Of a DNA stretch of 64,000 bases, positions 2,664-24,625 are shown one piece after another. The translations under genes and the position numbers were made by a program. Within the stretch, counting starts at the first letter, position 1, and each line of letters begins with the position of its first letter. The notes beneath the pieces were generated by a model. That model did not search any database. It saw only the letters and a program-made list of their open reading frames with translations, and was not told the origin of the DNA. The stretch spans positions 62,001 to 126,000 of the forward strand of contig LNEG01000009.1 in the NCBI GenBank assembly GCA_001464865.1, given 5' to 3'. This DNA comes from Burkholderiales bacterium Ga0074133 (GTDB taxonomy: Bacteria > Pseudomonadota > Gammaproteobacteria > Burkholderiales > Burkholderiaceae_C).

Positions 2664-2680
2664 CGCAAGGGTCGACCGGT

Positions 2681-5402: not shown

Positions 5403-5410
5403 GCGTGCTT

Positions 5411-5692: not shown

Positions 5693-5724
5693 GAGATCTT
5701 TCTGTGACGTTGTCTTCTACAGAA

Positions 5725-5753
5725 AAGATATCTCAAACACACGCCAGTGACAA
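5725..5753 (-). promoter_or_regulatory. promoter, recurrent family: TTGTCA-N17-TATCTT
   Basis: Plus-strand AAGATA 5725-5730, TGACAA 5748-5753, 17-bp spacer. Confidence 0.7.
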
Positions 5754-5810
5754 CGAACGGCGATCGCTTCTGACCATCCCTTGGTGAAAATCACAGACCT
5801 TTCAGAGCGA

Positions 5811-6752
5811 TCAAGCCTCTGCCTTCTGCTCGAGATGACGCCAGAGTGCGGGAACAACGCGCCGTGCCGTTTGCTCGACAGTCTCATTAACATCTCGTTT
5901 GAGATAGAGCCGCTCTGTGAACGTTGGAGGTAATGAGTCAGCCGATACATCTGAGTCAATGATGCTGATGATTTTGACATCCCCTTTGCTGCGAAGACGC
6001 GCCTTGAAGCTATCTAATTCGCTCTTGCACCATTTGCTAGCAAGAAAATTCTTCGTGACGAAGAAGATGACAGCTCGCGCATCGTAGATACCGGATTCAA
6101 CTTCGTTCGCAATATGGTCGCCAACATCGATGTTGACTTCATCAAACCAAACCGGCAATGCTGCAGCCGTTAGGTGTGGGAGTAACTCGCGAATAAATTT
6201 TTTATCAAGCGATGAATGGCTAATAAAAACCCCTCCATCATCACGAAGTGGACTCATCGAAATTGATTTGGCCACATCTGATTTTGTGCGGAAATGAAAT
6301 CCGTGGCTAAAGATAAATTCGAGCATTATTGGAATATCTAAAGTGAATAAGTTGAACCGTCCAAGCTTCATCTGATCACACAAGTATTGGCTTGTTAGGT
6401 CAGGGCGGTAAACGGAACCCGCCTGTGCCAAAGTGCCTTTGACATCCGAAACGATCGACTCATTGGTGACGTCTAATCCAAAAAAGACATAAAGGTCTAG
6501 GTCGTAGATGTTGTTGTTAATAAGCAGGGTGGCACCGCGAACTACGTCGCCGCCGTGTTTCTGCAGAATCTTCAGCAAGGCATGCTTCAAACTGTCGCGG
6601 CTACCATAGTCATGCCGGAAAACCAATGATTTGTACCTCGGCTCAAACTGCTGCGATTTTTCGCCAATGGATTGGTAGTTTGGTGGAATGCTAGAAACAT
6701 TTTTTATAAGCCCAACCAGTTTTCCCAATTTGAAGTCGAATCTTTTGTTCAT
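5811..6752 (-). CDS. TIR-domain protein with unknown N-terminal domain (candidate NADase/defence effector)
   Basis: C-terminal GGVFISHSSLDKKFIRELLPHLTAAALPVWFDEVNIDVGDHIANEVESGIYDARAVIFFVTKNFLASKWCKSEL is a classic TIR pattern; the gene is visibly more AT-rich than its surroundings. Confidence 0.85.
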   Translation of the reverse strand: MNKRFDFKLGKLVGLIKNVSSIPPNYQSIGEKSQQFEPRYKSLVFRHDYGSRDSLKHALLKILQKHGGDVVRGATLLINNNIYDLDLYVFFGLDVTNESIVSDVKGTLAQAGSVYRPDLTSQYLCDQMKLGRFNLFTLDIPIMLEFIFSHGFHFRTKSDVAKSISMSPLRDDGGVFISHSSLDKKFIRELLPHLTAAALPVWFDEVNIDVGDHIANEVESGIYDARAVIFFVTKNFLASKWCKSELDSFKARLRSKGDVKIISIIDSDVSADSLPPTFTERLYLKRDVNETVEQTARRVVPALWRHLEQKAEA

Positions 6753-6850
6753 TTGTTTAATGTGTAGACTTGGTCGTAGAATTTAATTGAAATAATGGGG
6801 TAAATATAAATGCAGGGCTGAAATACAATGAGCGCCCTAATTCATCAGAT

Positions 6851-7162
6851 TTATCGCCCTTTTGCAAACCATTCAGTGGCAGCCGTTGGCGTGCTCAAGC
6901 TGCCGAAGGCCTTGCGGTGCGCATTCATGGCCGCAGCTTGGCGCCGGGTGATGGGGATCGCGCCGCGGCGCAAGGCAATCGCTTTCTTCGTCAGGCAGAT
7001 GTCGTAGTGGCTTCCCGAGGTTTTCTCGGGGCTCTGCCACCAGATGCGTTTGATGCCAAGGGCGTCGGCCATGGTGTGGAGTTCGTCATCCGTATCGGCC
7101 AACATGTGGCACATGATGAGGTTGCCGAAGGGAGCTCGCATGTCGTCAACGTAAACAGCCAT
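6851..7162 (-). CDS. DUF4031-like protein
   Basis: MAVYVDDMRAPFGNLIMCHMLADTDDELHTMADALGIKRIWWQ: characteristic VYVDDMR...DELH..A..LG opening. Confidence 0.65.
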   Translation of the reverse strand: MAVYVDDMRAPFGNLIMCHMLADTDDELHTMADALGIKRIWWQSPEKTSGSHYDICLTKKAIALRRGAIPITRRQAAAMNAHRKAFGSLSTPTAATEWFAKGR

Positions 7163-7181
7163 GTTCGGCCTCCTTGCGCAG

Positions 7182-7502
7182 TCAGAAAGGGCACTCGGCA
7201 GCGGGCGAGGACACCGCGCTCCACCGTGAACGTCGAGGCCCCTCCTTGGCCTGGGCATCAGGGAATGCGGCCTCGATTGCCAGCTCCATGGCTATTTCGC
7301 GCAACACCTCCAAGGGCTCGCCGCGCCGTGAGGCCAAGTGAAGCTCACCCTCTGGGTGAACCACGCAGCACCGCGAGCCCGGGCGGTGCGCATAGTGGTA
7401 GCCGCCACATGTGCAGGAGCGGTGCCCGCTTGAGCGCATGTGCTCAAGCATCAAGAGGGGATCTTTGCGACGTGTGCGACAGTGGGGGCAACGGAACAGC
7501 AT
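7182..7502 (-). CDS. small Cys-rich (zinc-ribbon-like) protein
   Basis: MLFRCPHCRTRRKDPLLMLEHMRSSGHRSCTCGGYHYAHRPGSRCC. Confidence 0.5.
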   Translation of the reverse strand: MLFRCPHCRTRRKDPLLMLEHMRSSGHRSCTCGGYHYAHRPGSRCCVVHPEGELHLASRRGEPLEVLREIAMELAIEAAFPDAQAKEGPRRSRWSAVSSPAAECPF

Positions 7503-7629
7503 GGATAGGCTCCTGGAACCCCAAAGCGCGTCAAGGGACTCGTACTTGGGGCGGTGCAGCGGGCATCGTATGCGCAAAGGATATCAGATACGCACGTACC
7601 TCGCTGCGCCAAGTTCCGTCCCCAAAACA

Positions 7630-8037
7630 CTACATCCGAGGAGAGAATGCCCTGGTGGGCGCTGCTTGGGGATCGGTCTCTTCAACCTCTGTCTTCCCCA
7701 GGGGCAGGTGGCCCTCTTCTGGATACTCGGTGAACCAGCAAATAAGCGAATCCCCACTCTTGCTCACGGTCATCTCTGAGTCATCACCCCCAAACCACTC
7801 GACCAACGCTTTCGCCTGTCGAAGGGTGATGACCAACGCTGGTTCTGTCGGCTTGGCCTGAGCGCAAGCTAGGGCGGCAGAGGCCTCTGCAGCACCCGCT
7901 GCCATGGCTGTGGCAATGAATTCGGCTTCGAACTCACTCAGGTAGCGCATGTGTGTGTCGCCACGTTTGAGCTCCCACGCAGTCCCGTCTTGGTGGAGGG
8001 TTGCACCGTCGGATAGAGTCAAAACGCGAGCATTCAC
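7630..8037 (-). CDS. hypothetical protein
   Basis: GTG start overlapping the preceding TGA; VNARVLTLSDGATLHQDGTAWELKRGDTHMRYLSEFEAEFI.... Confidence 0.5.
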   Translation of the reverse strand: MNARVLTLSDGATLHQDGTAWELKRGDTHMRYLSEFEAEFIATAMAAGAAEASAALACAQAKPTEPALVITLRQAKALVEWFGGDDSEMTVSKSGDSLICWFTEYPEEGHLPLGKTEVEETDPQAAPTRAFSPRM

Positions 8038-8213
8038 GATTTCTCTCCCATCTTGGTGGTGGTTGCATGGCCCAGATCGCCATCCAGAAGCACCGTTGTG
8101 AGGCCTGCGGGGCGCCCTTGTGGCTGAACCGCTTCCATCTCGCCAAAGCCAGAGTCGCGTATGCCTGCCTCGAGAGTGCGAAGGAAGGCGTCGATGGAGT
8201 CTTCGTCGCTCAT
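8034..8213 (-). CDS. small hypothetical protein (59 aa)
   Basis: MSDEDSIDAFLRTLEAGIRDSGFGEMEAVQPQGRPAGLTTVLLDGDLGHATTTKMGEKS*; start and stop overlap both neighbours. Below the ORF-track length cut-off. Confidence 0.45.
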   Translation of the reverse strand: MSDEDSIDAFLRTLEAGIRDSGFGEMEAVQPQGRPAGLTTVLLDGDLGHATTTKMGEKS

Positions 8214-8440
8214 GCCATTTCCAACTGGTGCGGTGTTGACTGGTACGCGGCGAGAGCGCGTTCAGCATTCAAAAACTGTGAGAAGTCCTCGGAGGGGTCC
8301 GTGAAATGGAACTCAGCCACGGAGAAGCGTCCCACAGGGGTGTAGACAAAGATGCCCCATGCCGTATGGCTACCCTTTGGGCATACAACGACATCGCCGT
8401 GAGCGACGTGTGCAGGGTGCAGCAGGTAGATGGACGACAT
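8210..8440 (-). CDS. hypothetical protein
   Basis: MSSIYLLHPAHVAHGDVVVCPKGSHTAWGIFVYTPVGRFSVAEFHFTDPSEDF.... Confidence 0.5.
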   Translation of the reverse strand: MSSIYLLHPAHVAHGDVVVCPKGSHTAWGIFVYTPVGRFSVAEFHFTDPSEDFSQFLNAERALAAYQSTPHQLEMA

Positions 8441-8466
8441 GGGACTTTGTGTGTAGGTGTGTGGAG

Positions 8467-8495
8467 ACGATATCACATACACAATTCACAAGCAA
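8467..8495 (-). promoter_or_regulatory. promoter, recurrent family (variant): TTGCTT-N17-TATCGT with GTGTATGTGATATC
   Basis: Plus-strand ACGATA 8467-8472, AAGCAA 8490-8495, 17-bp spacer; upstream of ATG at 8440. Confidence 0.5.
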
Positions 8496-8532
8496 GGGCC
8501 GATTCAGAAGGCCCACCCCATCAATGGTCGGA

Positions 8533-8892
8533 TCAGCAGAACACGGGCGCAGTGTGAGGGAGAACGATGGTGTCGCCGATTTCGCTTGCAACGCGGCAGC
8601 GCATAGCAGCAATCAGCAGATCGGGTCCACGCGCCACTGTGCGTCCACGTGGGCCATAGCGGCGAATGGCGATGTGCCGGTGCCCCTCGGGCGCGGCCTC
8701 GTCGTAGGCGAAACTGATGCCCGCCCGCTCGATGATGGGCTCGGCCAGGTGGCGATCCAGGTTCGGCTCGAAGCGCTTCCAGCCGTCTTTGAGGACGTAT
8801 GGGAAGGTTTTCAGACCCTCGCACTCGGCGACGGCTCTGTTGAGAACGTCTCCAGTGGCGTTCGCGGTGAGCATGGTTTCTGCGATCAGCAT
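8533..8892 (-). CDS. NinX/DUF2591-like phage protein
   Basis: LNRAVAECEGL...PIIERAGISFAYDE...LLIAAMRCRVASEIGDTIVLP pattern. Confidence 0.65.
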   Translation of the reverse strand: MLIAETMLTANATGDVLNRAVAECEGLKTFPYVLKDGWKRFEPNLDRHLAEPIIERAGISFAYDEAAPEGHRHIAIRRYGPRGRTVARGPDLLIAAMRCRVASEIGDTIVLPHTAPVFC

Positions 8893-9239
8893 GAGGCCTC
8901 CTCGGCTACTTCGGTCTGGATCTTGTTGCCAGACACGCGATCAGAGGGGTCTACAAGCCTCACTTCGACACGTCCGTTGCGCGGAATGATGTAGGGGCAC
9001 TCGTCGGCCCAGAGGTCAGGTTTGTCCTGAAGGTTGGGCACGCAGCTGTGAAACAGCAACCCGGCGTCGCCTGCAAGCGCGCCAAAAATCTTGTACGAAA
9101 ACACGAAAAACTCCATTGAAAAAACTGGACCATCCCCGGATGCGCCACCCCTGGTGAGGGTGGTCATGCTGCTCGCCGGAGGGTTCTCCGGAAGCAGGCG
9201 ACCGTGCTGATCACTTGGTACAAATGCTCCCATGCGCAA
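8886..9239 (-). CDS. hypothetical protein
   Basis: 117-aa ORF overlapping the start of its downstream neighbour. Confidence 0.4.
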   Translation of the reverse strand: MRMGAFVPSDQHGRLLPENPPASSMTTLTRGGASGDGPVFSMEFFVFSYKIFGALAGDAGLLFHSCVPNLQDKPDLWADECPYIIPRNGRVEVRLVDPSDRVSGNKIQTEVAEEASC

Positions 9240-9349
9240 ATCACCGCCGTGTGACAGTCGGCGTGAGCAAGGGGCGTTTGTTGTGTGAAATTGTTCCCGT
9301 TTTCACGGGATACGTCTTGTGAAATAGAACCAGTCTTCGAGCGTTGTTC

Positions 9350-9580
9350 TCACCCGGTCCTGTTCTTGGGCCGTTTGTAGGCCTTGTGGTGGAGCCTATC
9401 CCACGGCCCACGAAGTCCCTTGGGGCTGGGCTTGATCCGCGGCCGCCCAGGCTGCTCGCGGTGCCGGCTCCAGTTGCGGTCGTTGGTGGCGCCACACCCC
9501 AGATCACCCATCCACCAGTCCAGGCACCAGATGTATCGGTGTTTGCGGCCGAGGATGAGCTTTTGGCGTCTCACATTCAT
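9350..9580 (-). CDS. small hypothetical protein
   Basis: 76-aa ORF MNVRRQKLILGRKHRYIWCLDWWMGDLGCGATNDRNW...; overlaps stop of upstream ORF. Confidence 0.4.
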   Translation of the reverse strand: MNVRRQKLILGRKHRYIWCLDWWMGDLGCGATNDRNWSRHREQPGRPRIKPSPKGLRGPWDRLHHKAYKRPKNRTG

Positions 9581-9804
9581 GGCAGCGGCTTCTTCGGTGT
9601 TGTCGAGATGGGAACCAGCATGGAAGCTTGCACCTTGAGGCCCCGGCGCTTGCTCTCGTCTTCCATGTCAAGTCTGTCGTTTGCCGCCTTCTGGGTCAGG
9701 TGGAAGGCGCCATCCAGGGCTTTCTTGAAGTCAGCCCCGTTGGGGCTCTCGGTCTTGGGCACGATGACCCAGACCTCGGCAGCGTATGCGAGGGCGAGAT
9801 TCAC
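9577..9804 (-). CDS. hypothetical protein
   Basis: Likely GTG start: VNLALAYAAEVWVIVPKTESPNGADFKKALDGAFHLTQKAAND.... Confidence 0.45.
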   Translation of the reverse strand: MNLALAYAAEVWVIVPKTESPNGADFKKALDGAFHLTQKAANDRLDMEDESKRRGLKVQASMLVPISTTPKKPLP

Positions 9805-9995
9805 AGGACACCCCTCGTCCCCGGCTGAGCGGCGAGGGATCCGTCCGCCAGATAGTGATACCCGGCAAAGCGCCGCGCGCCCAAGAATCCATCGGCCCTG
9901 TAGACCCGGTATCCCACCAGGTGCCCGGCGATGCGAATCAGCTTCAGATGGGGTTTCGCGGCCACACGTGGCGCGCACACGCTCTCTGCGGTCAT
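9801..9995 (-). CDS. small hypothetical protein
   Basis: 64-aa ORF, overlaps both neighbours by a few nt. Confidence 0.4.
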   Translation of the reverse strand: MTAESVCAPRVAAKPHLKLIRIAGHLVGYRVYRADGFLGARRFAGYHYLADGSLAAQPGTRGVL

Positions 9996-10423
9996 GTCGA
10001 CACCCCGCGACGTTCGCCGGCGGCCGCAGTGGTCAGTGGACGGCCCAAAAGTTCTGCCGGCACAAGGACGGTTCGCCCGAAGTGGGAGTGAACCAGGCAG
10101 CGCATTGCGGCTTCGAGCTCGTCATGCGAGATCTCCATGAACTGGGGATCGTCGTTCATGTCGTAGATGCATGCCACCCACCAGCCGTCATGCTTTTGAA
10201 CCGTGCTGATTCGGTGGCCGGTTTTCAGGGGGCCACCCACAGCCCAGTTGCCAGTTGGATTGAATGGCTTGTAGCCGAATTCAACCTCCAGCACCGGGTT
10301 CGTGATGTTCGGAACCGTCGTGAGCGCCCGTCCTTTGTGGACGGTCACAGGGATGCTCAAGGTCGTGGCCACAGCCCAGTTCAGGGCGTGTCCAGTCAAC
10401 TCGCGAGAGGCGATGTGGAGCAT
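9992..10423 (-). CDS. NinX/DUF2591-like phage protein
   Basis: MLHIASRELTGHALNWAVATT...EAAMRCLVHSHFGRTVLVPAEL; second copy of this family in the window. Confidence 0.65.
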   Translation of the reverse strand: MLHIASRELTGHALNWAVATTLSIPVTVHKGRALTTVPNITNPVLEVEFGYKPFNPTGNWAVGGPLKTGHRISTVQKHDGWWVACIYDMNDDPQFMEISHDELEAAMRCLVHSHFGRTVLVPAELLGRPLTTAAAGERRGVST

Positions 10424-10455
10424 GGGGCCGGTATGGGCGGGCTTTTGTTGTGAGT

Positions 10456-10935
10456 TCAAGATGCGCTCCTTTCGTTCAGCGAGTAGTTTTTCGACCGGGG
10501 CGCCACAGCCAGGCCCCCTGCAGACCGCACCTCTTCCAACTCGTCCCGCAACCGCTCGCACTCAACCTGCATCCGTGCCAGGCAGGACAGCAGCTCATCG
10601 TGTGGCAGGGCGTCGACAACCGCCACCGTGGACATGACAACCCACCCCTCGGCCAAGCCCCACACGGGGCCGCGCAGGATGCTGGTGACGCGGCGAATGG
10701 TGGAGCGACCTGTTTTGACAGCGGTCTCACCAGGCAGGAGGTCAGCGTGTGGCGCGGCTGTTTCGCACAAGATCAAGAGGTCGCCGCACTGGTAGTCCCT
10801 GTCGTCCAGTCGGATTTCGAATCGCTTGAGACCATCCAGGGTCTCCTGAAAGGGCTGGGGGTCGAGTTTTAGGACCACCGTTCGACCCGTGAGTGCGGGG
10901 TACTGCGTGTTGGAAGCTGTGGCTGGTGTTGGCAT
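10456..10935 (-). CDS. DUF3850 (ASCH-like) protein
   Basis: LKLDPQPFQETLDGLKRFEIRLDDRDYQCGDLLIL...ILRGPVWGLAEGWVVMS. Confidence 0.7.
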   Translation of the reverse strand: MPTPATASNTQYPALTGRTVVLKLDPQPFQETLDGLKRFEIRLDDRDYQCGDLLILCETAAPHADLLPGETAVKTGRSTIRRVTSILRGPVWGLAEGWVVMSTVAVVDALPHDELLSCLARMQVECERLRDELEEVRSAGGLAVAPRSKNYSLNERSAS

Positions 10936-10964
10936 GGTTCAGATCGTGATGACTGTGTGCGTAT

Positions 10965-10993
10965 AAGATATCTGGTAAATGCAGCGACGACAA
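10965..10993 (-). promoter_or_regulatory. promoter, recurrent family: TTGTCG-N17-TATCTT
   Basis: Plus-strand AAGATA 10965-10970, CGACAA 10988-10993, 17-bp spacer. Confidence 0.7.
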
Positions 10994-11073
10994 CAAGCCG
11001 GCCGGATCATCGACCCCTGTCAACACCTGATGAAACGGATATCCTTTGAGCAAGACATCTTCAAAGGACTCAC

Positions 11074-11430
11074 ATGAGCACCAAAACCAGCAACACACCA
11101 GGGGGCACAGAGATGCCCCACAGGTTCCATCCCCTGCTGCGCAGCCTCGAAGCGCTGCGCACAGAGATGTGGGTGAACCGAATGCGCACCGCGGAGATGA
11201 TTTTTCAGAACTTCGACTTTGGTGAAGCCCAGGTCAAAGACTCCAGTGGTTGGACATACGCCAGTGCGTCGGATGAAATTCAACGCACCGTTTTTTTGGA
11301 CATGGGAAGTGACGCCGGCGGCAACGGCATCAGCGAGCGTGTGTCCTTCCGTATTGAATTTGCGGAGGACCAATCCGCCGCTGTGGACGTAAGCGCAATC
11401 GTCCAGCGCACCGGCGCCGCCTTGACCTGA
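11074..11430 (+). CDS. hypothetical protein
   Basis: 118-aa ORF MSTKTSNTPGGTEMPHRFHPLLRSLEALRTEMWVNRMRTAEMIFQNFDFGEAQ.... Confidence 0.5.
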   Translation: MSTKTSNTPGGTEMPHRFHPLLRSLEALRTEMWVNRMRTAEMIFQNFDFGEAQVKDSSGWTYASASDEIQRTVFLDMGSDAGGNGISERVSFRIEFAEDQSAAVDVSAIVQRTGAALT

Positions 11431-11555
11431 TCTCCCCTCACCCAAACAGAAGCGCCTGCCCGCAACTGTCTCAATTCCAGAATTGCTGTCGCTGGGGCAC
11501 AACATCAACGTTCTGTATTCGACGCGTCCCTTACCTGCTTGATAGAGTCAGCCCC

Positions 11556-12401
11556 ATGAAAAACACGCTCAAAGCCATCTCTTCTGTTCTGCTTGCATGC
11601 TCCGTCAATGTCGCCATGGCACAGGAGTTCTATTCCTCTTGGCCGCGAATCGAGCTGGGCAAGATCAAATGGTTCATTGACGAAGAGTCTTTGACGAAGG
11701 TCGGCAACACAGTGTTTTTTGACAGCTTCATGAACACAGACACAAAGGCAACGCTGTCGTACGAAACAGCCACCAGGGTCGGGTTCACCTGCGATGCCAA
11801 CTCGTACGTTCAGATTGTACAGCCGTGGGCACAGGACGAAGGTGAATCCATGCGGGGAGGCCTGAAGTCGAGTCTGGACTTGAATCGATCCATTGAGCTC
11901 AACCCGCAATTTGTGACCATCAAGCGAGCCGAGAAAACCCAGGCCCTCACGAGCCTCCTGGCCACTCTCTGCAAGACAAGAAAGCGGGCTGATCGGGATT
12001 TGATGATGGTCGTTGCCAAGACCACTGAAGAGGTCAGCGTCGCGCGCCTCTCCACCTACCAGCGGATCAATGCCAACCAAGTCGAAGCCTGGGTGGACAA
12101 CGTGAACCTTTCCACGTTTGCCATGTTGACGTTCAGGTCGGGAGAATGGGCTCCCGCTCTCAATGAAGACGGGAGTGCGAAGCGCGAGGCAACCATGGGT
12201 ACCAACCGAAAGACGATCTACAAGCGCAGGTTTGATTGCGAAAGAAACCGTGCAGTTGTCATCTCCTACAACGAATACGACGACAAAGGAAATTCCAAGG
12301 ACTCGTTTGTCCAACCCAATCCGATTCCGGAGTCAAAGTGGCGAGAAGTCATTCCGGGTACCGTGGGTGAAGGCGTGCTCACGATGTTGTGCGCCCTTTG
12401 A
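11556..12401 (+). CDS. secreted hypothetical protein
   Basis: Signal peptide MKNTLKAISSVLLACSVNVAMAQ; rest unrecognised. Confidence 0.7.
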   Translation: MKNTLKAISSVLLACSVNVAMAQEFYSSWPRIELGKIKWFIDEESLTKVGNTVFFDSFMNTDTKATLSYETATRVGFTCDANSYVQIVQPWAQDEGESMRGGLKSSLDLNRSIELNPQFVTIKRAEKTQALTSLLATLCKTRKRADRDLMMVVAKTTEEVSVARLSTYQRINANQVEAWVDNVNLSTFAMLTFRSGEWAPALNEDGSAKREATMGTNRKTIYKRRFDCERNRAVVISYNEYDDKGNSKDSFVQPNPIPESKWREVIPGTVGEGVLTMLCAL

Positions 12402-12440
12402 TTGCATGGTGCCGCGATTCTTTCGCGGCTTGGGATCGAC

Positions 12441-13259
12441 TTAGACGATCGAGTCCATGTGCTCTTGTGCCAGACCAAGCTTCAGGTTGTTGAGCAGCTT
12501 CCAATGCCGTTTGAGGATTGGACGCTCCTCACTCTGCATGATGGGTCCCCACTGATCGAGTTGATCCGCGTAGAGGTGCACCTGGTTCGCTCTGCGTGCA
12601 GCTGAGAACAGGGCGTCGTCCTCTGGCAGCAGCAGGCGCTCAAGTCTCGGGAGCCCCGAGGCCATACCCATGCCGGCGGGGTCGAAGTCGAAGTAGGCCC
12701 ACACCGGCTCTGTGCGCTGTGCAATCAGCTTCATGGCCACATTGGTTTTCAGGACGTTGTCGCCTCGAAAAATGGCCAAGACGTCCTTGCCCTGGAAGTC
12801 GAGCCATCGGTTTCGTTCCAGAAACCGAAAACTCTCCAGGTTCTCCACCACCAGCAGCACATCGGCCTCCACCAAGCTGGCCTGCTCGAGCGTGAGCACC
12901 TGGTAGCCGTGGGTGGCCACCAGGTCACCATCCAGCGAACACCGCCCGTGTGCGGTCTTCACCGCCACCGAGTCGTGGTGGGGCGCCAGTGTCCCGCTTT
13001 TTTCCTGCGTGGGGTTGTTCAGAGACGCTTCGCTGCGGCGCAGCGCCTGGTCGGGGGGTGTCAGCGCAATGTTGCGGTTGGCCAGCAGCAAACGCGCGCG
13101 CGCGGCATCGGACTCTTCGTAGTGGAAGCGAGAACCCGCCCGGCGGCCCAAGCCGTGGTGAACATGAAAAAACTCGGCAGCCTGACTCGCCGACTTCTCG
13201 GCGGCGCTGCGGGAGGCGAGATGGCGCAGGAAAGCGATCTGGGAGTGGTTGAAGCTCAT
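12441..13259 (-). CDS. Toprim-domain nuclease subunit, JetD/MksG-like (DUF7281-like) of Wadjet-type module
   Basis: Toprim motifs LLVVENLESF and VWAYFDFDPAGMGMA; overlaps the upstream MksF-like gene by 4 nt. Confidence 0.7.
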   Translation of the reverse strand: MSFNHSQIAFLRHLASRSAAEKSASQAAEFFHVHHGLGRRAGSRFHYEESDAARARLLLANRNIALTPPDQALRRSEASLNNPTQEKSGTLAPHHDSVAVKTAHGRCSLDGDLVATHGYQVLTLEQASLVEADVLLVVENLESFRFLERNRWLDFQGKDVLAIFRGDNVLKTNVAMKLIAQRTEPVWAYFDFDPAGMGMASGLPRLERLLLPEDDALFSAARRANQVHLYADQLDQWGPIMQSEERPILKRHWKLLNNLKLGLAQEHMDSIV

Positions 13260-14521
13260 GCGTTCGGGTGCCGGCTCAACCGTGCGGCCGCGTCGTTGAA
13301 GTAGTCGTTGTATTCGCCTGGCGCGCGGGGCCTGATGTCCAGGTCGACGGTGAAGCCGGCCGAGGAGATCTGGGAGTAGGCATAGAGCAGCCAGTCTTCA
13401 TCGGATGTGGCCCCGTCCAGGCCGTAGGCCTCTCCCAGTCGCTGGCGCCAGCGCAGCAGGGACAGATCGGCCTCCTCGCTGAGCACAGCGTCGCTGGAGA
13501 TAAAGTCAAGGTAGGCGTCGATGAGGTCATCAATTGGGTACGACGGTGCCTGCACGATGACCTGCTGTGTGCTCAGCACCACTGGTGACTCCACCGGGTC
13601 GGACTTCTTCGCCGGTGTGGCAGCAGGCAAGCGCCTGGCTGCGGCCAGAATGCCAGAGGTCACCATCTCGTCGGTGTCACTGACGTCAATGTTCCAAGCG
13701 GTGGGGAGCCCCATGGGCGGCAACAACCGCACAGCCACCTCGGGTGTGACGTCGACCTCGAAGCCTTCGCTCAGCCGGTTCTTGGAGAGCCAGAGCGACA
13801 CGCGCGCCAGGTTGCGCTGCCTGGATTCGAGCTGGCGAAGGGAGAACAGGTTTTTGGAGACCACCCGCTGGATGTCGGCGATCCGGGCGGCCCAGCCGCG
13901 CAGGCGCGAGAGGATGCGCACGTTGATGAGGCGGTGCACCTCGCGCAGGCTGTCACCCAGGGACTCGTTGTCCATCTCCTGGGCTTTGGCCTCCAGGCTG
14001 GTGATCTGTTGGCCGAATTTCTTGACCTCGCCGTAGTAGAACTGGTTCTCGCGGATCTTGCCGGCCACCGAGTCGACATCGCCGAAGTTGGTTGAGACCT
14101 TGGCGCTGAGCAGCTGCAGGTTCTGGTCCATGTAGAACCCGATCCGGACCACCGCTTCTTCCAGCCGGTTCATGGCTTTTTCCGAGTCGCGGTGCGACCC
14201 TTCACGGCGAAACTCTCGCAGTTCGTCGAACTCCAGGCGCAGCTGGCGGATGGGGCCGTCCAGCCGAGTGAGCTGGCGAAACGCACCGTAGCTCACCACG
14301 TAGTCCCCAATGAACTCACGCAGCAGGGGGTTGAGGTAGTAGGTGTCCTCGTCCACCGGCATCAGCGCACGCATGCTGATGAGCGTCTCCACCCCTTTGT
14401 CCCGCTTGCCCCCGGTGGCCACCGGGCCCCGCATGGCGTCTCCGACCAGGTCGCTGTGATCGGAGAGCGCCTTGAGCAGCCGCTGGATGTGATTGGGCGC
14501 CTGCCCCTGGCCCGGCTTCAT
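13256..14521 (-). CDS. MksF/JetA-like kleisin subunit of Wadjet-type module
   Basis: MKPGQGQAPNHIQRLLKALSDHSDLVGDAMRGPVA...; N-terminal winged-helix-like region followed by helical segments; operon position between the MksE-like and Toprim genes. True start inside the longer ORF 13256..14908. Confidence 0.65.
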   Translation of the reverse strand: MKPGQGQAPNHIQRLLKALSDHSDLVGDAMRGPVATGGKRDKGVETLISMRALMPVDEDTYYLNPLLREFIGDYVVSYGAFRQLTRLDGPIRQLRLEFDELREFRREGSHRDSEKAMNRLEEAVVRIGFYMDQNLQLLSAKVSTNFGDVDSVAGKIRENQFYYGEVKKFGQQITSLEAKAQEMDNESLGDSLREVHRLINVRILSRLRGWAARIADIQRVVSKNLFSLRQLESRQRNLARVSLWLSKNRLSEGFEVDVTPEVAVRLLPPMGLPTAWNIDVSDTDEMVTSGILAAARRLPAATPAKKSDPVESPVVLSTQQVIVQAPSYPIDDLIDAYLDFISSDAVLSEEADLSLLRWRQRLGEAYGLDGATSDEDWLLYAYSQISSAGFTVDLDIRPRAPGEYNDYFNDAAARLSRHPNA

Positions 14522-14525
14522 GGGG

Positions 14526-15212
14526 TCACTCACCGGCGCCCTCCTGGGAGGCGTGGCGAAGCAGGTCCGACTGGCCGGCAGATCCAACGACTCCATCCGC
14601 CTCATCACCAGCTTCACCCAATTCTTCGAGTGGCGCCTCGGAGAGTTCTGGTACGTGCTCGACCAGGTACTGCAACACGGCATGGAGGTGGTCGATCTTG
14701 CCGGTGACTTGATAGATCTCGCTGGCCTCGTTGGAGACGATGAGGTAGCCGTCCGACTTGAGCTTCTCCAGAAGCCGGCGCAGCAGGTCGTGGTTGGACC
14801 ACCGGGAGTCGGCACCCGTACGCAGCTCTCGAAGCTGGGCGACCAGTGTGGAGTCCTCGTTGACCCGCATGACGATCTCGGCGAGCTGAACGAACTCACC
14901 AGGCACACCGCGGAACCCGTCCTTCGCCAGCCGCACCAGGTTCAGCATCTGCGTGAGCAGGCCGTAGCTGTCGCGAAAGCGGATCAGGTCCGAGCGCACC
15001 TTGTTGACGTCCTCCACACGGTGCACCTGCAGCGGCGCCACGTAGAAAGCCCCGTCATCGCCCAGGCGTGCCAGGCGCCGGTCCAAACTGGAGAGCCATG
15101 TGTCCACCTGGTCGTGCACGCCGGCCGAGGTGAGGTCTTCATACGCTTCAGGGAAGGCGAACTGGCAGATGAAGTGCCCGCCGAGCAGGTGGTGCAGCGT
15201 TTCAGGCTTCAT
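14526..15212 (-). CDS. MksE/JetB-like subunit of Wadjet-type module
   Basis: MKPETLHHLLGGHFICQFAFPEAYEDLTS...RRLLEKLKSDGYLIVSNEASEIYQVTGKIDHLHAVLQYL; winged-helix-like, adjacent to SMC and MksF-like genes. Confidence 0.6.
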   Translation of the reverse strand: MKPETLHHLLGGHFICQFAFPEAYEDLTSAGVHDQVDTWLSSLDRRLARLGDDGAFYVAPLQVHRVEDVNKVRSDLIRFRDSYGLLTQMLNLVRLAKDGFRGVPGEFVQLAEIVMRVNEDSTLVAQLRELRTGADSRWSNHDLLRRLLEKLKSDGYLIVSNEASEIYQVTGKIDHLHAVLQYLVEHVPELSEAPLEELGEAGDEADGVVGSAGQSDLLRHASQEGAGE

Positions 15213-15561
15213 GGCCAGCTCCTTCGTTGGTCAGTGGAGCCCTCGTTCGGCGCCGCTGCGCCGGAGCGAAAAGCCCGATCGATCCCCGGTCGCGAAACAC
15301 GTAACACTTCTGGAAATGACGGAAGTCCGCCGGCGTGAGCTTGGGCGATGCTGTCACAGGGTCGATGCGGTTTTCTCGCAAGGTGTCCATGAGGCCCTTG
15401 AAGTTGCCGCTGTCGAACTTGAGCACCTCATCACTCGTCCACGGGATGAAGAGGTCAGCGTCCTTACGGATCATGTTGAGCATCCCCACCAACAAGGTGA
15501 TGAGCACGATGCTCCAGGTCGGCCTCACGGCTGAAGTGACGCGTTTCCCCGTTGATCTCAA
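15202..15561 (-). pseudogene. C-terminal fragment of the upstream SMC (JetC/MksB-like) in a shifted frame
   Basis: Frame contains SIVLITLLVGMLNMIRKDADLFIPWTSDEVLKFDSGNFKGLMDTLRENRIDPVTASPKLTPADFRHF, a Walker-B/D-loop-like SMC C-terminus missing from ORF 15464..18883. Homologous sequence probably begins near 15516. Confidence 0.6.
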
Positions 15562-18500
15562 CGCTGCCCCGCAGCACCACGTGCGATGCCAGGTCGAGCT
15601 CGACCGTGGAGTCAGAGCGCAGCAGCGCCAGGAACTTGGTCAGCGCGCCGGCCGTGCGCGCGTCCGGCAGTTTGTCTCCGTCACCGATCCGAATCTTGGC
15701 CTCGTGCTCGCGGCCCACGCGCTCGATCTCGTTGACCTCCTTCATCAGGTCCAGGTCCGAGAAGTTGGAGACGATGGCCACCTTGAAGTCGTGGATGCGC
15801 TTGAAGTGAGCCACACTCAGGCCCCGCTGGAACTCGTTGTTGAATCGCTTGATCTCCGCCTCGAATCGGGTGATGGTGCTGCGGAACTGCTGAACCTGCT
15901 GCAGGATGACCGAAGCTTCGTTGATGACGTTGGGCAGCACCTGGCGGCCCAGCTCCTTGTGCAGCAGGCAGATCTCCTCGGCCGCGCGGATCCGGCTGGC
16001 ACCCTCGGCGAGGGCCGCGAGGTGGGTCTGGATGAACTCAGCAACCGCACTGGTGCTGCCGGTGAGGGCGTCACGAACGTGCAGATACCGCCGGCTCACC
16101 TTCTCCTGGCAGTTCTCAAGCAGGGTTTGAGCCCGGTGAAGGTCGGCCTTGATGTCCTCCACGCTTTGCTCAGGGTCCACCTGGCGGGTGCTGAATTCGG
16201 GCAGCCCCAGTGAACTCAGCAGCTCAGCGAGCTCCTGAACCTCTTGGCCCAGTTGCTTGGAGAACTTCTCCAGGCGATCGACTTCGGCGGTGAATTCATC
16301 CTGTTTTCGCCTGACTTCAGCGTTATGGGTGCTGAGTTCATTGTTGGCGCGGTCGTTTTCGTTGAAAGCAAGACGACGCCGCTCGATGAGGCTGGCCAGA
16401 ATTTGATCGCCGCCTTCACCCAACCAGGCGCGCCAGAGGTCGACCGTGGGACGGCGATTCTCAGCAGTCACCATCTCCTGGTACAGGTCGTGTACCCGCT
16501 TGTTCAGCTCCCTGAGGCGGTCGGGATCGACGCCGGCGCGCCGCTGGTCCGCTTCCATTTCCTGGCGAAGACGGGTCACTTCGACCTGCCCAGCGGCCAC
16601 CGCGGCCACGGCCGCCTTTTCGATGTCGGCAAGCTCCTCGTTCAGCTTTCGGTCGTTCTCACCCAGGGCGGCTCGCAGGCCTTGTCGCAGGGTGCTCAGA
16701 GCCGCCCGATGGGCTGTTTGCAGGTTGTTTAACTGGGTCGAAAGCTCGCCGGACTCCCGCTCGAGGGCATCAAGCTGCCTCTGGCCATCAGCCTTGAGCG
16801 CCTTGATTTCGAGATCGCAGGTCGACAGAGCAGCCGCCAAGGCGTGTTTGCGGGCTTCCAGTTTTGAGTCCGCCGCTCTCGCTTCTGCCTGGGCATTCGT
16901 ATTCGCCTCGGCAAGCGCTTGCGCAGATTTCCCGGCGCTCGACATCGCCACCTGGGCGGCTTCAGACTTCTCACGTGCAGCCGCCACTGTGTTCTGAGCC
17001 TGGATCAGGGCATCACGCAGCAACTGGTCATCGGTCCAGGCGGCCGTCTCGAGGCCCTGGGTGTTCAGTCGCCACCCGTAGGCGGTGTCATTGGCGTCGT
17101 CTGCGATGTAGGTCGCAGCGAGATCGCTTCGGCCCAGCAGCGTGGGGTCAATGATCTTGGCCAGAGTCGACTTCCACTCGAGGTTCGGGCTCTCGCGCAG
17201 TGCGCTCAAGAGGCTACCGTCGGCAGGGGTGAGCATCGCTTGCGCGGCTGCCAGCGCGCGCTCGCATTCCACGACCTTGTCCGCCGCCTTGGCGGCCGCA
17301 GCTTCGGCTTCGGCAAATGCGCTGGTGGCCACCTGGCCCTTCAGCGCCGCTTCGCCGGCTTTGAAAACCGCGGTGGACTTGTCGTCCTGAGCGCCGGAGA
17401 CAGCCTTCCGCGCCAGATCCAGGGCTTGCTGACTTGCTGCACTGGCCTGAGCTGACGCGATCTGCGCCCGCAGATTGGCCTTGGATTCGATGGCCTCCGT
17501 CAGCCTGGGGCTGATTTCATCGCTCTTGCTGTTGAATTCATTTTCGGCTTCAAGAACCCGTTGATCGTGGACCTGATTCAGCCGCGCGGCCTCAGCAGTG
17601 CTGCGCGAGCGGGCGTCTTCTTTGCCCGCGCGCAGATCTGCTGCCGCATTGGTGGCCACGAGCTCCGCGTTGTGAATGAGGGTGGCGTACCTGGCGCTGA
17701 TCTCACCGGCCTGACCGCTGACGATCTCGATCTGTGCCTTCGCTGCCGCATGGTCGTTTTGAAGCTGCGGGATTTTCTCGACGGCAGCGCTCCATGCCTG
17801 CACCTCGTGCAAGGACAGGGAGGCTCGGCGTGCCTCTTCGTTGGTGATGGCAAGGTTGGAATCTCGAAGCAGCCGACCTGCAGTCGTGGCAGCCTCACCC
17901 AACTGCTGAGTCCGCAGATTGGCTGTGTTCTCGTGGTCAGAGCGCTCAGACTGCTTCCTGCTCAGCTGCCTGTTGCTCTCGGTGAGCCGATCCCGTCGCA
18001 GGAGCAGCGCCGGCGCAATGGCTTGGCGCGCGGCCCTGAGATCCGCCTCGGCTTGCGTGTGCTCCCGGCCGGCATTTCTCAGCAGCTCAACTTCATCGGC
18101 CATGCCGAAAGCCATCTCGAGCGCTTGCCGATCCCGAAGCCAGCGCTGGATCTGCTCCTTGCTCTGGCGCAGTGTTACGCGATGGCGACTGGGTGAGTCG
18201 CCATGAGAGCTCAGCCGCTCCTGGACAATCGTGATGGCCAGCCGCACGAAATCCTTGAAGTCAACCTTCTCCTTGGCCACCGCGGCGATCAGCCTGTCCA
18301 GGTTAGTCAATCGCGAGCCGAATCCGTAGACCGTGCTCAAGATTCGCAGCTTCTTCGCATCCTGCGTGCGCGCCTCATGTCCCAGGATGACGGCTCGGTA
18401 GTCGGCGATGTCGAGCAGTTGGGAGACTTGCACACCCATGTCTTCGAACGCCTGAGCCATCTGCCTGTCGTCGCAGAAGGTGTTTTCGCCGCCTTCATTC

Positions 18501-18883
18501 AACCGCGTGAAGGCCTCCTCGCGGAATGGACCTTTGACCAGGCGAAACACCGGCCGGTGATCGCTGTCGGTGCGGCGAAGGACAGCGCAATGCACGTCGT
18601 GCGCTTCATCATTGCCGCGCTGGTACTCAAAAACGATCGCACTCTGGGGCATCGGCAGCACGAACTTCAACATGGGCTCACGTCCACCCACTGTCTCGGT
18701 GATCTGGCTGGGCAAAGCACCGAAGAAAAGCGGAAACAACTCCAGGGCGGTCGTCTTGCCGACGGAGTTTTCACCGGTGACTGCGGCGCCACCGCGCGGA
18801 TCCACCTCATTGATGCTGGCGGAGGTGGCGCTGCCACTGGTGCGGGTGTTGACCAGCAGCATGCGTCGAAGTCGTGAAGTCAA
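15464..18883 (-). CDS. SMC-like ATPase, JetC/MksB-like; lacks its C-terminal lobe in this frame
   Basis: Walker A TGENSVGKTTALELFPLFFGALPSQI; long coiled coil; frame ends ...FSREADLEHRAHHLVGGDAQHDP* while the expected C-terminus continues in another frame. TTG start at 18883 or ATG at 18862. Confidence 0.75.
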   Translation of the reverse strand: MTSRLRRMLLVNTRTSGSATSASINEVDPRGGAAVTGENSVGKTTALELFPLFFGALPSQITETVGGREPMLKFVLPMPQSAIVFEYQRGNDEAHDVHCAVLRRTDSDHRPVFRLVKGPFREEAFTRLNEGGENTFCDDRQMAQAFEDMGVQVSQLLDIADYRAVILGHEARTQDAKKLRILSTVYGFGSRLTNLDRLIAAVAKEKVDFKDFVRLAITIVQERLSSHGDSPSRHRVTLRQSKEQIQRWLRDRQALEMAFGMADEVELLRNAGREHTQAEADLRAARQAIAPALLLRRDRLTESNRQLSRKQSERSDHENTANLRTQQLGEAATTAGRLLRDSNLAITNEEARRASLSLHEVQAWSAAVEKIPQLQNDHAAAKAQIEIVSGQAGEISARYATLIHNAELVATNAAADLRAGKEDARSRSTAEAARLNQVHDQRVLEAENEFNSKSDEISPRLTEAIESKANLRAQIASAQASAASQQALDLARKAVSGAQDDKSTAVFKAGEAALKGQVATSAFAEAEAAAAKAADKVVECERALAAAQAMLTPADGSLLSALRESPNLEWKSTLAKIIDPTLLGRSDLAATYIADDANDTAYGWRLNTQGLETAAWTDDQLLRDALIQAQNTVAAAREKSEAAQVAMSSAGKSAQALAEANTNAQAEARAADSKLEARKHALAAALSTCDLEIKALKADGQRQLDALERESGELSTQLNNLQTAHRAALSTLRQGLRAALGENDRKLNEELADIEKAAVAAVAAGQVEVTRLRQEMEADQRRAGVDPDRLRELNKRVHDLYQEMVTAENRRPTVDLWRAWLGEGGDQILASLIERRRLAFNENDRANNELSTHNAEVRRKQDEFTAEVDRLEKFSKQLGQEVQELAELLSSLGLPEFSTRQVDPEQSVEDIKADLHRAQTLLENCQEKVSRRYLHVRDALTGSTSAVAEFIQTHLAALAEGASRIRAAEEICLLHKELGRQVLPNVINEASVILQQVQQFRSTITRFEAEIKRFNNEFQRGLSVAHFKRIHDFKVAIVSNFSDLDLMKEVNEIERVGREHEAKIRIGDGDKLPDARTAGALTKFLALLRSDSTVELDLASHVVLRGSVEINGETRHFSREADLEHRAHHLVGGDAQHDP

Positions 18884-19680: not shown

Positions 19681-19709
19681 AAGATATCCACTCGAATCGC
19701 CCGCGACAA
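19681..19709 (-). promoter_or_regulatory. promoter, recurrent family: TTGTCG-N17-TATCTT
   Basis: Plus-strand AAGATA 19681-19686, CGACAA 19704-19709, 17-bp spacer; just upstream of the transglycosylase. Confidence 0.7.
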
Positions 19710-20885: not shown

Positions 20886-22439
20886 TTAGGCCTGTCGTGA
20901 TTCGATTCGGAAAACTTTGATCACTTCGGTCAAGCGGCCTGCCTGGTCTTTCAAGCTCTCAGCGGCGGCCGCACTCTCTTCCACGAGGGCAGCGTTCTGC
21001 TGCGTCATCTGGTCCAGCTGCGTCACCGCCACGTTGACCTGCCCGATACCGTCGCTTTGCTCACCAGCCGCTGCCGAGATCTCTCCTATGATGTCGGACA
21101 CCCGCTGGACCGAGCCTACGATCTCGCTCATGGTCTGTCCCGCGTCGGCGACAAGCCGGGAGCCTGCCTCCACCTTTTCCACGCTCGCGCCGATCAGACC
21201 CTTGATTTCCTTGGCCGCCTGCGCGCTGCGCTGAGCCAGGTTGCGCACCTCGGCCGCCACCACCGCAAAGCCCCGGCCCTGTTCTCCGGCCCGCGCGGCT
21301 TCTACCGCGGCGTTCAAGGCCAAGATGTTGGTCTGGAAGGCGATGCCGTCGATGACACCGATGATGTCGCTGATCTTTTTGCTGCTGTGGTTGATCTCGT
21401 CCATGGTCGTGACCACCTGGCCCACCACCTGCCCACCGCGAACGGCGATCTCGGCAGCGCTGGCGGCCAGCTGATTGGCCTGACGCGCTGCATCGGCGCT
21501 CTGGCGCACGGTGCTGGTGAGTTGTTCCATGCTCGCAGCGGTCTCTTCCAGGTTGCTCGCGGCCTGTTCGGTGCGGGCGCTCAGGTCCTGGTTGCCCGAG
21601 GCAATTTCGTAAGACGCGGTGTTGATGCTGTCGGTGGCACTGCGCACCTGACCCACAGTCTGGATCAGCGAGGTCTTCATCTCGGCCAGCGCGCGCAACA
21701 GGTCGCCCAGCTCGTCCTTGCGCGTGGTTTGCACGGTGCCATTCAGATCGCCAGCGGCCACCGCCGAGGCGATGTCCACGGCTTCGTGCAGCGGCGTGGT
21801 CACCGACACTGTGATGCGCCAGGCCACCAGGCTGGCGATCAACACCGCCAGCGCAGCCAGGGCGATCATGACCATCGACTGGCGGTTGACTGTCTGCTCG
21901 GAAGCAGCCACCGCGACTGTGGCCAGCTCCCGTTGGTACTTCTGCAACTCCACCATTGAGTCGGTGTAGCGATTGGCCCCAGGCAGTAGCGCTGAATCGA
22001 GCTGCTGGGTTGCCGCAGCAATGTCCCCGCCCTTGAGCGTTTCAAAGTAGGTCTTGCGCACGGCAATGTACTCGGCTCGCCGATCTGCAATGTCTTTCAT
22101 GAGCGCCTTGCCACGTTCACTGGTGATCTTCTCATCCAGCGCCTTCTGCAGCTCGTTGATGCGTTCGGTGGTCTGCGCAATCAGGGGCTTGAAATAAGCG
22201 TCTACTTCGGGGTTGGCGCCCGACTTGGCCACGCCGAGAACGCGGTTGATGTTCAAGCGGGTGCTCGCCAGCCACTCCTCCATCAATGCAGCGCGGCGCT
22301 CCATCTCGATCACCTTGGCGGTGGATTGGTGAGCAGTTTGCAGGCTGGACCAGGCTATGGCGGTGAGTGCCACCAGCAGCACGAGGACGCTGGCAAAGCC
22401 CAGTGTGAGCCGTTGGCCGATTTTGATTTTGTCGAACAT
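20886..22439 (-). CDS. methyl-accepting chemotaxis protein
   Basis: Signalling hairpin [58 protein letters not shown] and periplasmic 4-helix region. Confidence 0.95.
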
Positions 22440-22690: not shown

Positions 22691-24625
22691 TTATCTGAAA
22701 CGCGCCATCCTCGGAGCGGGTGCCATTGGCTTTTCAGCGGCAGCTGCTACCAGGTCGTTGTCAGGGGCCTCTTCAAAGACCTCGGCCGCTGAGATCAGAT
22801 CGTCAGTTGACAGTGCCATCGGAGCTGCCATCGCCACCGCCACATTTTGCTTGACCTCTTCCTCAGGAGCGAAGAGGGCATTCTGCACAGCGATGCGCTC
22901 GCGAAGATCGTTGAGATCCTGCTGGCCGTGCAGGTTGTGCTCCTGGCGCCAACGGGTCCGGCGAAGGGTCTCGTCGATCTGTTTCGACTTGCCCTTGGTG
23001 ATCGCTACGGTGCCGTACTGCAGGTAGGTCAGATACCCGGTTGCCCAGTCGTGGTGGTCATCACGGCAGTGGGCCTTGACCATCTCGCGACCGAAGAACT
23101 CCACAAAATCCATGGCACCTTCGGGATCAACGTCGATGCCATCAGGGGACTCGTCATCAATGACCAGCTGCCCGTTCTTCAGCACCTTCATCTCCAGCCC
23201 GCAGCTCTCCGCATGCATCTCTCGCACGGCGTCGCGCAGGCCGTACATAGGCCCATTGAGCTCCGACCAGCTGTTTCCCACATACAGCTTGCCCAGCACC
23301 GGCAGCGGTGTCTTGGGCACTCGCTCAATGGTCGGCGGGTACATTCGCAGCCCGTCTTCCACCTCGAAGAAGAGTTTCAAGCCCGCAAACGGTGGCCATA
23401 GACCATATAAGGACCACCTGGCATCGATCGCGACAAGCATCTGGTAGTCGATGATCTGCACGCCCGATTCGATCTGGGCAGTCAAGGCATAGCCAAGCAG
23501 GTTCTTCACCATCTGAGGTGAGTAGGTGTCCGCCTGGATCTTGATGAAGCCGTCTTCATCGATCGTGCGGCCGATGTACTGGCGCAGGCTCCAGTCGTAC
23601 TGGGAGTGAGCAACAAAGTCGCGTAATGCAGACAAGGGCTTCATGTAGCCGTAGCGCGCTGGGTCGCCCTCGATCATCTGTTCCATCGATCGGTCGGAGC
23701 CTACGCGAACACAGAGGTAGCAGCCGGTGCGAGCGCCGCACCCCGTGGTCTTGCCGGCAGTCTTCATGTCGGCCACGATGACACAGGAGCTGCCCCCCGC
23801 TGCCGCATACAGCTCCATCACCTTTTCAAACTTGCTGTACGCCGAATACTCGCCTGCGGCCGCAAGGCCAAGGTACGTCCACACGTCGTCGGTTTCCCAA
23901 TCAAGGATGGGGGAAGCGCGCAGCTGGCCATGATCGTTTTCCCAGATCCCCTCCGCGACTTCGCCGCGCTTGGCGATGCGCACATCGCGCGCCGCCGACT
24001 CGGTCATGCGAACGCCTGTCATTACCACTGGCGCCTTGAGATCAGGGCGGGTTCCAAGTTCGGCCATGGCGATCTTCAACAGGCGTGTGTTGGGTGCAAC
24101 CTTGAGGTCTTGGCTGCACGAGCCCTGACCATCGGGGAAGCTTGGAATCCCCCGGCCGCCGATCGTCTTGACTTGCCAGGTGGAACTCAGGGTGGGTTTG
24201 CCAACGCGAACCGTGAGCTCGATGCCGTGTTCCTTGGCGTAAGCACGCATTCTCCGCATCTCTTCGGTGGCCAGTCGAGACACCTCAGGCTGTTCGATTC
24301 CCGTGTTCGAATGCACCACTGTGAGAGGTGTTGGTTTGATGCCTTCGGAGATCATCTGACGCGCGACATCCAATCCCAAGGACACCAGGCAGCTAGAGTC
24401 CTTCCCGCTTGAGAATGCATAAATAATCGGGTGTCCCTCGAGCATGATCGAGCGGATTCGGCGCTGCGCACGCACAACGGGGTCCTCCTGGCGAACGGGG
24501 ATCACAGCCGAGATGCGCGTGACGGCCGATGCAACCGGCGTCAAGGTCGAAACCACTGACTCCGTGAAATCTTCCTCAAAGAGGTCGATCTGGGCGAATG
24601 CGGTCTGGTTGCTGGCGAAATCCAT
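22691..24625 (-). CDS. PAPS-reductase/DndC-like PP-loop protein
   Basis: PP-loop IIYAFSSGKDSSCLVSLGLD; C-rich GCGARTGCYLC; 644 aa. Confidence 0.75.
   Translation of the reverse strand: MDFASNQTAFAQIDLFEEDFTESVVSTLTPVASAVTRISAVIPVRQEDPVVRAQRRIRSIMLEGHPIIYAFSSGKDSSCLVSLGLDVARQMISEGIKPTPLTVVHSNTGIEQPEVSRLATEEMRRMRAYAKEHGIELTVRVGKPTLSSTWQVKTIGGRGIPSFPDGQGSCSQDLKVAPNTRLLKIAMAELGTRPDLKAPVVMTGVRMTESAARDVRIAKRGEVAEGIWENDHGQLRASPILDWETDDVWTYLGLAAAGEYSAYSKFEKVMELYAAAGGSSCVIVADMKTAGKTTGCGARTGCYLCVRVGSDRSMEQMIEGDPARYGYMKPLSALRDFVAHSQYDWSLRQYIGRTIDEDGFIKIQADTYSPQMVKNLLGYALTAQIESGVQIIDYQMLVAIDARWSLYGLWPPFAGLKLFFEVEDGLRMYPPTIERVPKTPLPVLGKLYVGNSWSELNGPMYGLRDAVREMHAESCGLEMKVLKNGQLVIDDESPDGIDVDPEGAMDFVEFFGREMVKAHCRDDHHDWATGYLTYLQYGTVAITKGKSKQIDETLRRTRWRQEHNLHGQQDLNDLRERIAVQNALFAPEEEVKQNVAVAMAAPMALSTDDLISAAEVFEEAPDNDLVAAAAEKPMAPAPRMARFR

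What the first reader, a model, noticed from the sequence alone, without database searches (positions are those of the whole stretch)
12441..18883. Wadjet/MksBEFG-like SMC module on a conjugative element, in non-canonical order SMC-E-F-Toprim
Four adjacent minus-strand genes encode an SMC with Walker A TGENSVGKTT, an MksE-like protein, an MksF-like protein and a Toprim protein. Canonical Wadjet operons are usually described as jetA-jetB-jetC-jetD (F-E-SMC-Toprim); here transcription order is C-B-A-D. Wadjet is known to cleave plasmids, so carriage on a mobile element suggests inter-plasmid competition with a self-sparing mechanism, or a different role such as element compaction. The module starts ~105 bp downstream of the transglycosylase gene and may share its promoter at 19681-19709.
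Basis: partly seen in the sequence, partly recalled or inferred. Interest (0 to 1): 0.74.

Follow-up and report, generated by a model that had tools for sequence, protein, structure and literature searches.

The report
Broken plasmid-borne MksBEFG/Wadjet-like defence module
A large plasmid in an Acidovorax-group bacterium carries a four-gene DNA-looping-and-cutting module of the kind that destroys small plasmids, in a gene order that proves normal for a widespread branch absent from the defence catalogue tested, but here the motor gene has lost 26 bases at its active site and is probably dead.

Summary
A 26-nt deletion near position 15,515 removes the ABC signature codons that every intact relative keeps, and shifts the frame, so the C-terminal ATPase half (15202-15516) lies in another frame. 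The other three genes are open. Predicted folds match MukF/JetA (kleisin) and Topo VI-A/MksG (Toprim nuclease). The order "C-B-A-D" is not an oddity of this element: about 50 intact relatives in Gammaproteobacteria (Burkholderiales, Vibrio, Acinetobacter, Pseudomonas and others) have it, 16 of them on plasmids. PADLOC's JetABCD models do not recognise the members tested, although they recognise true type I Wadjets in the same genus. A canonical-order system (F-E-SMC-Toprim) in the same bacterial family uses the same DUF7281 nuclease. Best reading: a divergent MksBEFG/Wadjet-like anti-plasmid module with permuted order, here recently inactivated; its SMC is lost repeatedly on other replicons. 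The contig (at least 150 kb) is plasmid-like with an I-type transfer system. The shared promoter is unsupported. Size-based self-sparing fits 15 of 16 intact plasmid carriers; one 40-kb plasmid contradicts it. Activity is untested.

The parts
15464..18883 (-). SMC (MksB/JetC-like, DUF3584), N-terminal 1,125 residues in frame: Walker A and coiled coil; ends in about 14 aberrant residues
   Evidence: Pfam PF12128 E 1e-102, model 10-1109; 48-49% identical to intact Hydrogenophaga SMCs
15500..15530 (-). junction of the 26-nt deletion: ABC signature codons (HISSTGIN in relatives) absent, frame shifted
   Evidence: DNA comparison with L052, L053, L054, L068; all other SMCs aligned keep the signature
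15202..15516 (-). out-of-frame C-terminal SMC head fragment (Walker B ...PWTSDEV..., D-loop region)
   Evidence: Pfam PF12128 model 1118-1191, E 3e-12; 74% identical to L054 over 103 aa
14526..15212 (-). E: KITE subunit, MksE-like, 228 aa
   Evidence: PF21980 24.5 bits in the window copy; 15 of 20 relatives match MksE, 3 match DUF4194/JetB
13256..14521 (-). F: kleisin, MksF/JetA-like, 421 aa
   Evidence: AlphaFold2 model pLDDT 73; Foldseek top hits MukF 7nz2/9gm7/1t98 and JetA 8q72_E
12441..13259 (-). D: Toprim nuclease, MksG/JetD-like, DUF7281, 272 aa, with E139, D191, D193 and C-terminal QE266 conserved
   Evidence: PF23947 E 1.7e-21; model pLDDT 89, Foldseek top hits Topo VI-A 1d3y and MksG 8b7f; invariant residues
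18988..19674 (-). upstream lytic transglycosylase (SLT) gene, 104 bp before SMC; adjacent, probably not part of the module
   Evidence: PF01464; other SMC-E-F-D loci examined with annotation have different upstream genes

Best explanation
This is a decayed member of a widespread gammaproteobacterial branch of MksBEFG/Wadjet-like complexes with gene order SMC-KITE-kleisin-Toprim. In intact relatives, by analogy with Wadjet and MksBEFG, an SMC motor with its kleisin and KITE would extrude DNA loops, sense a small closed circle when extrusion completes, and activate the Topo VI-like Toprim nuclease to cut it, protecting the host and its resident large plasmid from small competitors. In this assembly a 26-nt deletion removed the SMC's ATP-hydrolysis signature and shifted the frame, so the motor should be dead while E, F and D remain open; the loss looks recent. 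Shown here: composition, folds, order, deletion, distribution. Inferred: anti-plasmid function, loop extrusion, inactivity of this copy.
For: SMC, E and D Pfam matches; F fold MukF/JetA; D fold Topo VI-A/MksG with conserved Toprim acids; DUF7281 is also the fourth gene of a canonical F-E-SMC-Toprim system whose E is clearly MksE; order conserved in 23 genome loci, 3 further genomes and 16 plasmids, and SMC-E-F in 12 of 12 more distant genomes; deletion against close relatives; recurrent SMC loss elsewhere; published mechanism and size limit of Wadjet (PMC10586767), nuclease role of MksG and natural mksB defects in P. putida and PA14 (PMC10123090).
Against: No activity data for any member of this branch. 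PADLOC Wadjet models do not match, and profile-profile comparison with type I Wadjet links only the SMC head convincingly. The deletion is known from one fragmented assembly and could be a strain variant or assembly error. Deletion of a type III Wadjet in C. necator had no plasmid phenotype (PMC12645576), so function cannot be assumed from homology.
Confidence: 0.72

Rival explanations
1. The SMC is intact in the living plasmid; the 26-nt deletion is an assembly or minority-strain artefact, and the module works as an anti-plasmid system.
For: One assembly in 255 contigs; frame open on both sides of the junction; post-break fragment still 74% identical to L054.
Against: A 26-nt loss is not a homopolymer slip, and the surrounding genes have complete frames; no second SMC allele in the genome; SMC loss is common elsewhere in the family.
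Confidence: 0.2
2. The branch serves the plasmid itself (compaction, segregation or copy-number control, MukBEF-like), not defence.
For: Frequent carriage on large plasmids; SMC/MukBEF complexes act in chromosome organisation.
Against: A Toprim nuclease gene is part of every intact plasmid set examined, with invariant catalytic acids in the aligned family, and MukBEF has none; the module also sits on chromosome-size contigs (L037, L039), on a 40-kb plasmid and next to a Tn7-like element; a plasmid-maintenance gene should not be lost so often.
Confidence: 0.12
3. The remaining E, F and Toprim genes keep a function without the SMC (for example a nuclease-kleisin pair).
For: E, F and D are open here, and Cupriavidus pENH92 keeps only F and D, both full length.
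Against: Wadjet needs all four subunits in B. subtilis (PMC10586767); most loci keep all four; recent decay explains the open frames.
Confidence: 0.08

Closest known systems
MksBEFG (Corynebacterium/Pseudomonas type, order mksF-E-B-G)
   Same: SMC, KITE (MksE), kleisin and Topo VI-like Toprim; a canonical-order F-E-SMC-Toprim system in the same bacterial family uses the same DUF7281 nuclease family
   Different: SMC about 1,235 aa against 917 aa in that system; gene order SMC-E-F-D instead of F-E-SMC-D; window SMC broken
Wadjet type I (JetABCD)
   Same: Same four functional parts; F model matches JetA 8q72_E; SMC heads related (hhalign E 2.5e-6)
   Different: No match to PADLOC JetABCD models; JetD about 400 aa against 272 aa; order A-B-C-D against C-B-A-D
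MukBEF
   Same: Kleisin fold MukF; SMC/KITE/kleisin architecture
   Different: MukBEF has no nuclease gene and, from general knowledge, the order mukF-E-B
Wadjet type III (Cupriavidus necator H16)
   Same: Burkholderiales four-gene Wadjet, deleted and tested in PMC12645576
   Different: Locus-tag order JetA-B-C-D, recognised by PADLOC; no plasmid phenotype on deletion under the conditions used

Membership tests
MksBEFG/Wadjet superfamily (broad sense) | Kleisin subunit | tested here: met
   Foldseek top hits MukF and JetA
MksBEFG/Wadjet superfamily (broad sense) | KITE subunit (MksE/JetB) | tested here: met
   15 of 20 family members match Pfam MksE, 3 match DUF4194; the window copy itself is just below cut-off
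MksBEFG/Wadjet superfamily (broad sense) | Topo VI-like Toprim nuclease with E, DxD | tested here: met
   Fold 1d3y/8b7f; E139, D191, D193, QE266 invariant
MksBEFG/Wadjet superfamily (broad sense) | SMC ATPase with Walker A, signature motif and Walker B in one protein | tested here: not met
   Window copy: signature deleted, Walker B out of frame. Met in relatives, so the branch qualifies in the broad sense while this copy is a likely pseudogene of it
Wadjet types I-III as catalogued | Match to JetABCD models | tested here: not met
   No PADLOC Jet hit for the window, L054 or L070; type I controls L101 and L109 hit strongly
Wadjet / MksBEFG | Operon order kleisin-KITE-SMC-Toprim | tested here: not met
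   SMC-KITE-kleisin-Toprim in all intact members found
Wadjet / MksBEFG | Restriction of small circular plasmids | not testable with these tools
   Needs transformation and plasmid-stability assays
Conjugative plasmid (I-type) | DotA/TraY, thin-pilus genes, relaxase | tested here: inconclusive
   TraY (TIGR04346 E 7e-103), T2SSE, T2SSF and secretin found; no relaxase found in the ORFs scanned

The most novel reading that the evidence does not exclude
A large, uncatalogued gammaproteobacterial branch of SMC-Toprim systems (order SMC-E-F-G) is preferentially carried by large plasmids as a weapon against smaller plasmids, and its SMC motor is repeatedly lost (deletion here; IS insertions in IncC, IncHI2A and Acinetobacter plasmids) when the weapon becomes costly.
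Probability: 0.35. Interest if true: 0.6.

Novelty: new variant of a known kind. Interest (0 to 1): 0.42.

Why it matters
Wadjet/MksBEFG systems shape which plasmids bacteria can hold. A conserved branch that the defence catalogue tested here misses, often on large plasmids including IncC and IncHI2 types, would mean plasmid-on-plasmid warfare is under-counted. The permuted order gives a simple way to find it, and its repeated SMC loss gives natural experiments on its cost. This window's copy shows decay rather than a working weapon.

Tried and rejected
Considered and rejected: (1) programmed frameshifting at the SMC break: the signature codons are absent in every frame. (2) Order unique to this element: rejected by about 50 loci. 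(3) Lamassu/LmuB: only weak coiled-coil hits. (4) Integrative element: plasmid backbone colinear with pACP4.1 instead. (5) Size rule as full explanation of self-sparing: an intact module on a 40-kb plasmid.

Full report
OBSERVATION. The region holds, on the minus strand, an SMC gene (15464-18883, TTG start), an MksE-like gene (14526-15212), a kleisin gene (13256-14521) and a Toprim gene (12441-13259). Pfam assigns DUF3584 to the SMC (E 1e-102), MksE weakly to E (24.5 bits, cut-off 27) and DUF7281 to the Toprim protein (E 2e-21); F has no Pfam family.

THE BREAK. The SMC ORF matches DUF3584 only to position 1109. Positions 1118-1191 (Walker B and D-loop side of the ATPase head) lie in a different frame at 15202-15516. 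The closest relatives, Hydrogenophaga L052-L054 and Burkholderiaceae L068 (SMC 49% identical), read DLEHISSTGINAII through this point; the window is 26 nt shorter there. The lost codons are the ABC signature. All 19 other SMCs in alignment A8 and all 16 intact plasmid SMCs keep it. The out-of-frame fragment is still 74% identical to L054 over 103 aa with no stop, so the event is recent, or is an assembly or strain artefact. No other DUF3584 gene exists in this genome. Frameshifting cannot rescue it, since the codons are absent. That the deletion arose by slippage at a short direct repeat is my inference.

WHAT THE PARTS ARE. With alignments of relatives, AlphaFold2 gave D a confident model (pLDDT 89) whose best PDB matches are Topo VI subunit A and C. 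glutamicum MksG. E139, D191, D193 and the C-terminal QE266 are invariant in 20 sequences. F (pLDDT 73) has an N-terminal winged-helix-like part, a helical bundle, a low-confidence linker and a C-terminal winged-helix-like part; all of its top 12 PDB matches come from MukF or JetABCD entries, although global TM-scores are low, as expected for a flexible multi-domain chain. E matches MksE in 15 of 20 members and JetB's DUF4194 in 3.

THE ORDER IS NORMAL FOR ITS BRANCH. In the same bacterial genus and family, 10 DUF7281 loci have SMC-E-F-D. The genome-collection scan gave 33 SMC loci, nearly all labelled Burkholderiales, 23 with the full set in that order; that scan rests on two peptide motifs, so it is not a census. 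A kleisin profile run on other Gammaproteobacteria found 12 more loci, all SMC-E-F, 8 with a recognisable D. On plasmids, 16 intact sets share the layout, in Rhodoferax, Polaromonas, Variovorax, Acinetobacter, Marinobacter, Azospira, Aromatoleum, Vibrio and Pseudomonas. Nine other DUF7281 loci lack this SMC; five of them read F-E-SMC(917 aa)-DUF7281, the canonical mksFEBG order, with a clear MksE. The window's SMC is related to that one (hhalign E 3.6e-6), and the two D families align through the Toprim acids and the C-terminal QE (E 0.0016). This makes the window's branch look like a permuted-order relative of MksFEBG. Published MksBEFG operons are mksFEBG (PMC10123090).

NOT IN THE CATALOGUE TESTED. 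PADLOC 2.0.0 JetABCD models hit none of the four proteins of the window or of intact relatives L054 and L070, but hit type I Wadjets of the same genus with E down to 0. Some Acinetobacter D proteins are annotated DUF2399, a domain PADLOC lists for JetD, so part of the branch may already be typed elsewhere.

THE ELEMENT. The contig is 150.5 kb with no terminal overlap. It carries DotA/TraY (TIGR04346), secretin, T2SSE and T2SSF thin-pilus-type genes, a sigma-70 factor and a topoisomerase, and is colinear with Acidovorax carolinensis pACP4.1 over many genes. The genus is Acidovorax by contig-length matches of its members. No relaxase was identified in the ORFs scanned, so 'conjugative' is probable only. 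Carriage of Wadjet on plasmids is already known: PDB entry 8q72 is titled 'E. coli plasmid-borne JetABCD', and PMC10586767 notes it.

HOW IT PROBABLY WORKS. Wadjet recognises closed circles, in the favoured model by loop extrusion, and cuts them with JetD; circles above about 100 kb and linear DNA escape (PMC10586767). By homology, an intact member of this branch would do likewise. Of 16 intact plasmid carriers, 15 are at least 107 kb, and this contig is at least 150 kb, which fits size-based self-sparing. But Acinetobacter pACI-b25a is a 40-kb circle with an intact set, so size cannot be the whole answer, and I did not correct for the sizes of plasmids in general.

REPEATED LOSS. Outside the window: D truncated in L053; F and D missing in L068; SMC frameshifted in L076 and L079; remnants in L081, L084 and Acidovorax pEP1; SMC and E missing in Cupriavidus pENH92. 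On plasmids, the SMC is split by ISSod4 beside a Tn7-like element in an Enterobacter IncC plasmid, cut by ISAhy2 in a Leclercia IncHI2A plasmid, with the same partial match in 12 further enterobacterial records, and cut by IS3 in an Acinetobacter 50-kb plasmid. PMC10123090 reports an apparently split mksB in P. putida and a Walker A-less MksB in PA14. Inactivation of this motor is therefore common, which supports taking the window's deletion at face value.

VERDICT. A real module of a known kind with a branch-specific order, not described as such in the literature I could search, but non-functional as read here. The general finding about the branch is more interesting than this copy.

Noticed in passing
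window 5811-6752 (-) and 3756-5627 (-): TIR-domain protein next to an AAA ATPase, possibly another defence pair on the same contig.
   Followed up: no
window 22691-24625 (-): 644-aa PAPS-reductase-family protein with sub-cut-off similarity to DndC (112 bits; cut-off 290), without an obvious dnd operon next to it.
   Followed up: no
window 28034-31516 (-): 1,160-aa protein without Pfam or NCBIfam match; relatives in 1,244 plasmid records, and a 43% identical one lies 3.4 kb upstream of the SMC module in the Rhodoferax ferrireducens plasmid.
   Followed up: partly
window 54969-63980 (-): Plasmid-borne sigma-70 factor, unknown protein, DotA/TraY and topoisomerase in the same order as in Acidovorax carolinensis pACP4.1; Cupriavidus pENH92 also has an rpoD near its F-D remnant.
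   Followed up: partly
L138 (Leclercia IncHI2A plasmid) and hits H21-H33: 13 enterobacterial records share a partial SMC match of this branch; in the one opened it is an SMC remnant cut by ISAhy2.
   Followed up: partly
L142 (Enterobacter hormaechei IncC plasmid), 1804-16727: The module lies directly beside a Tn7-like transposon (TnsA, TnsD-type), with the SMC split by ISSod4.
   Followed up: no
L006 10022-12075 (Cupriavidus pENH92): Full-length kleisin and Toprim genes of this branch without SMC or KITE.
   Followed up: partly
L047 5928-10048: DUF7281 behind a 1,084-aa SMC-like protein, with no separate kleisin or KITE ORF just upstream: possibly another arrangement.
   Followed up: no
window 20886-22439 (-): Methyl-accepting chemotaxis gene on a plasmid-like contig, with about 75% identical stretches on other plasmids.
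   Followed up: no
G000 contig C9, L086 13427-14701 (-): Ribonucleotide reductase small-chain gene on the same plasmid-like contig.
   Followed up: no
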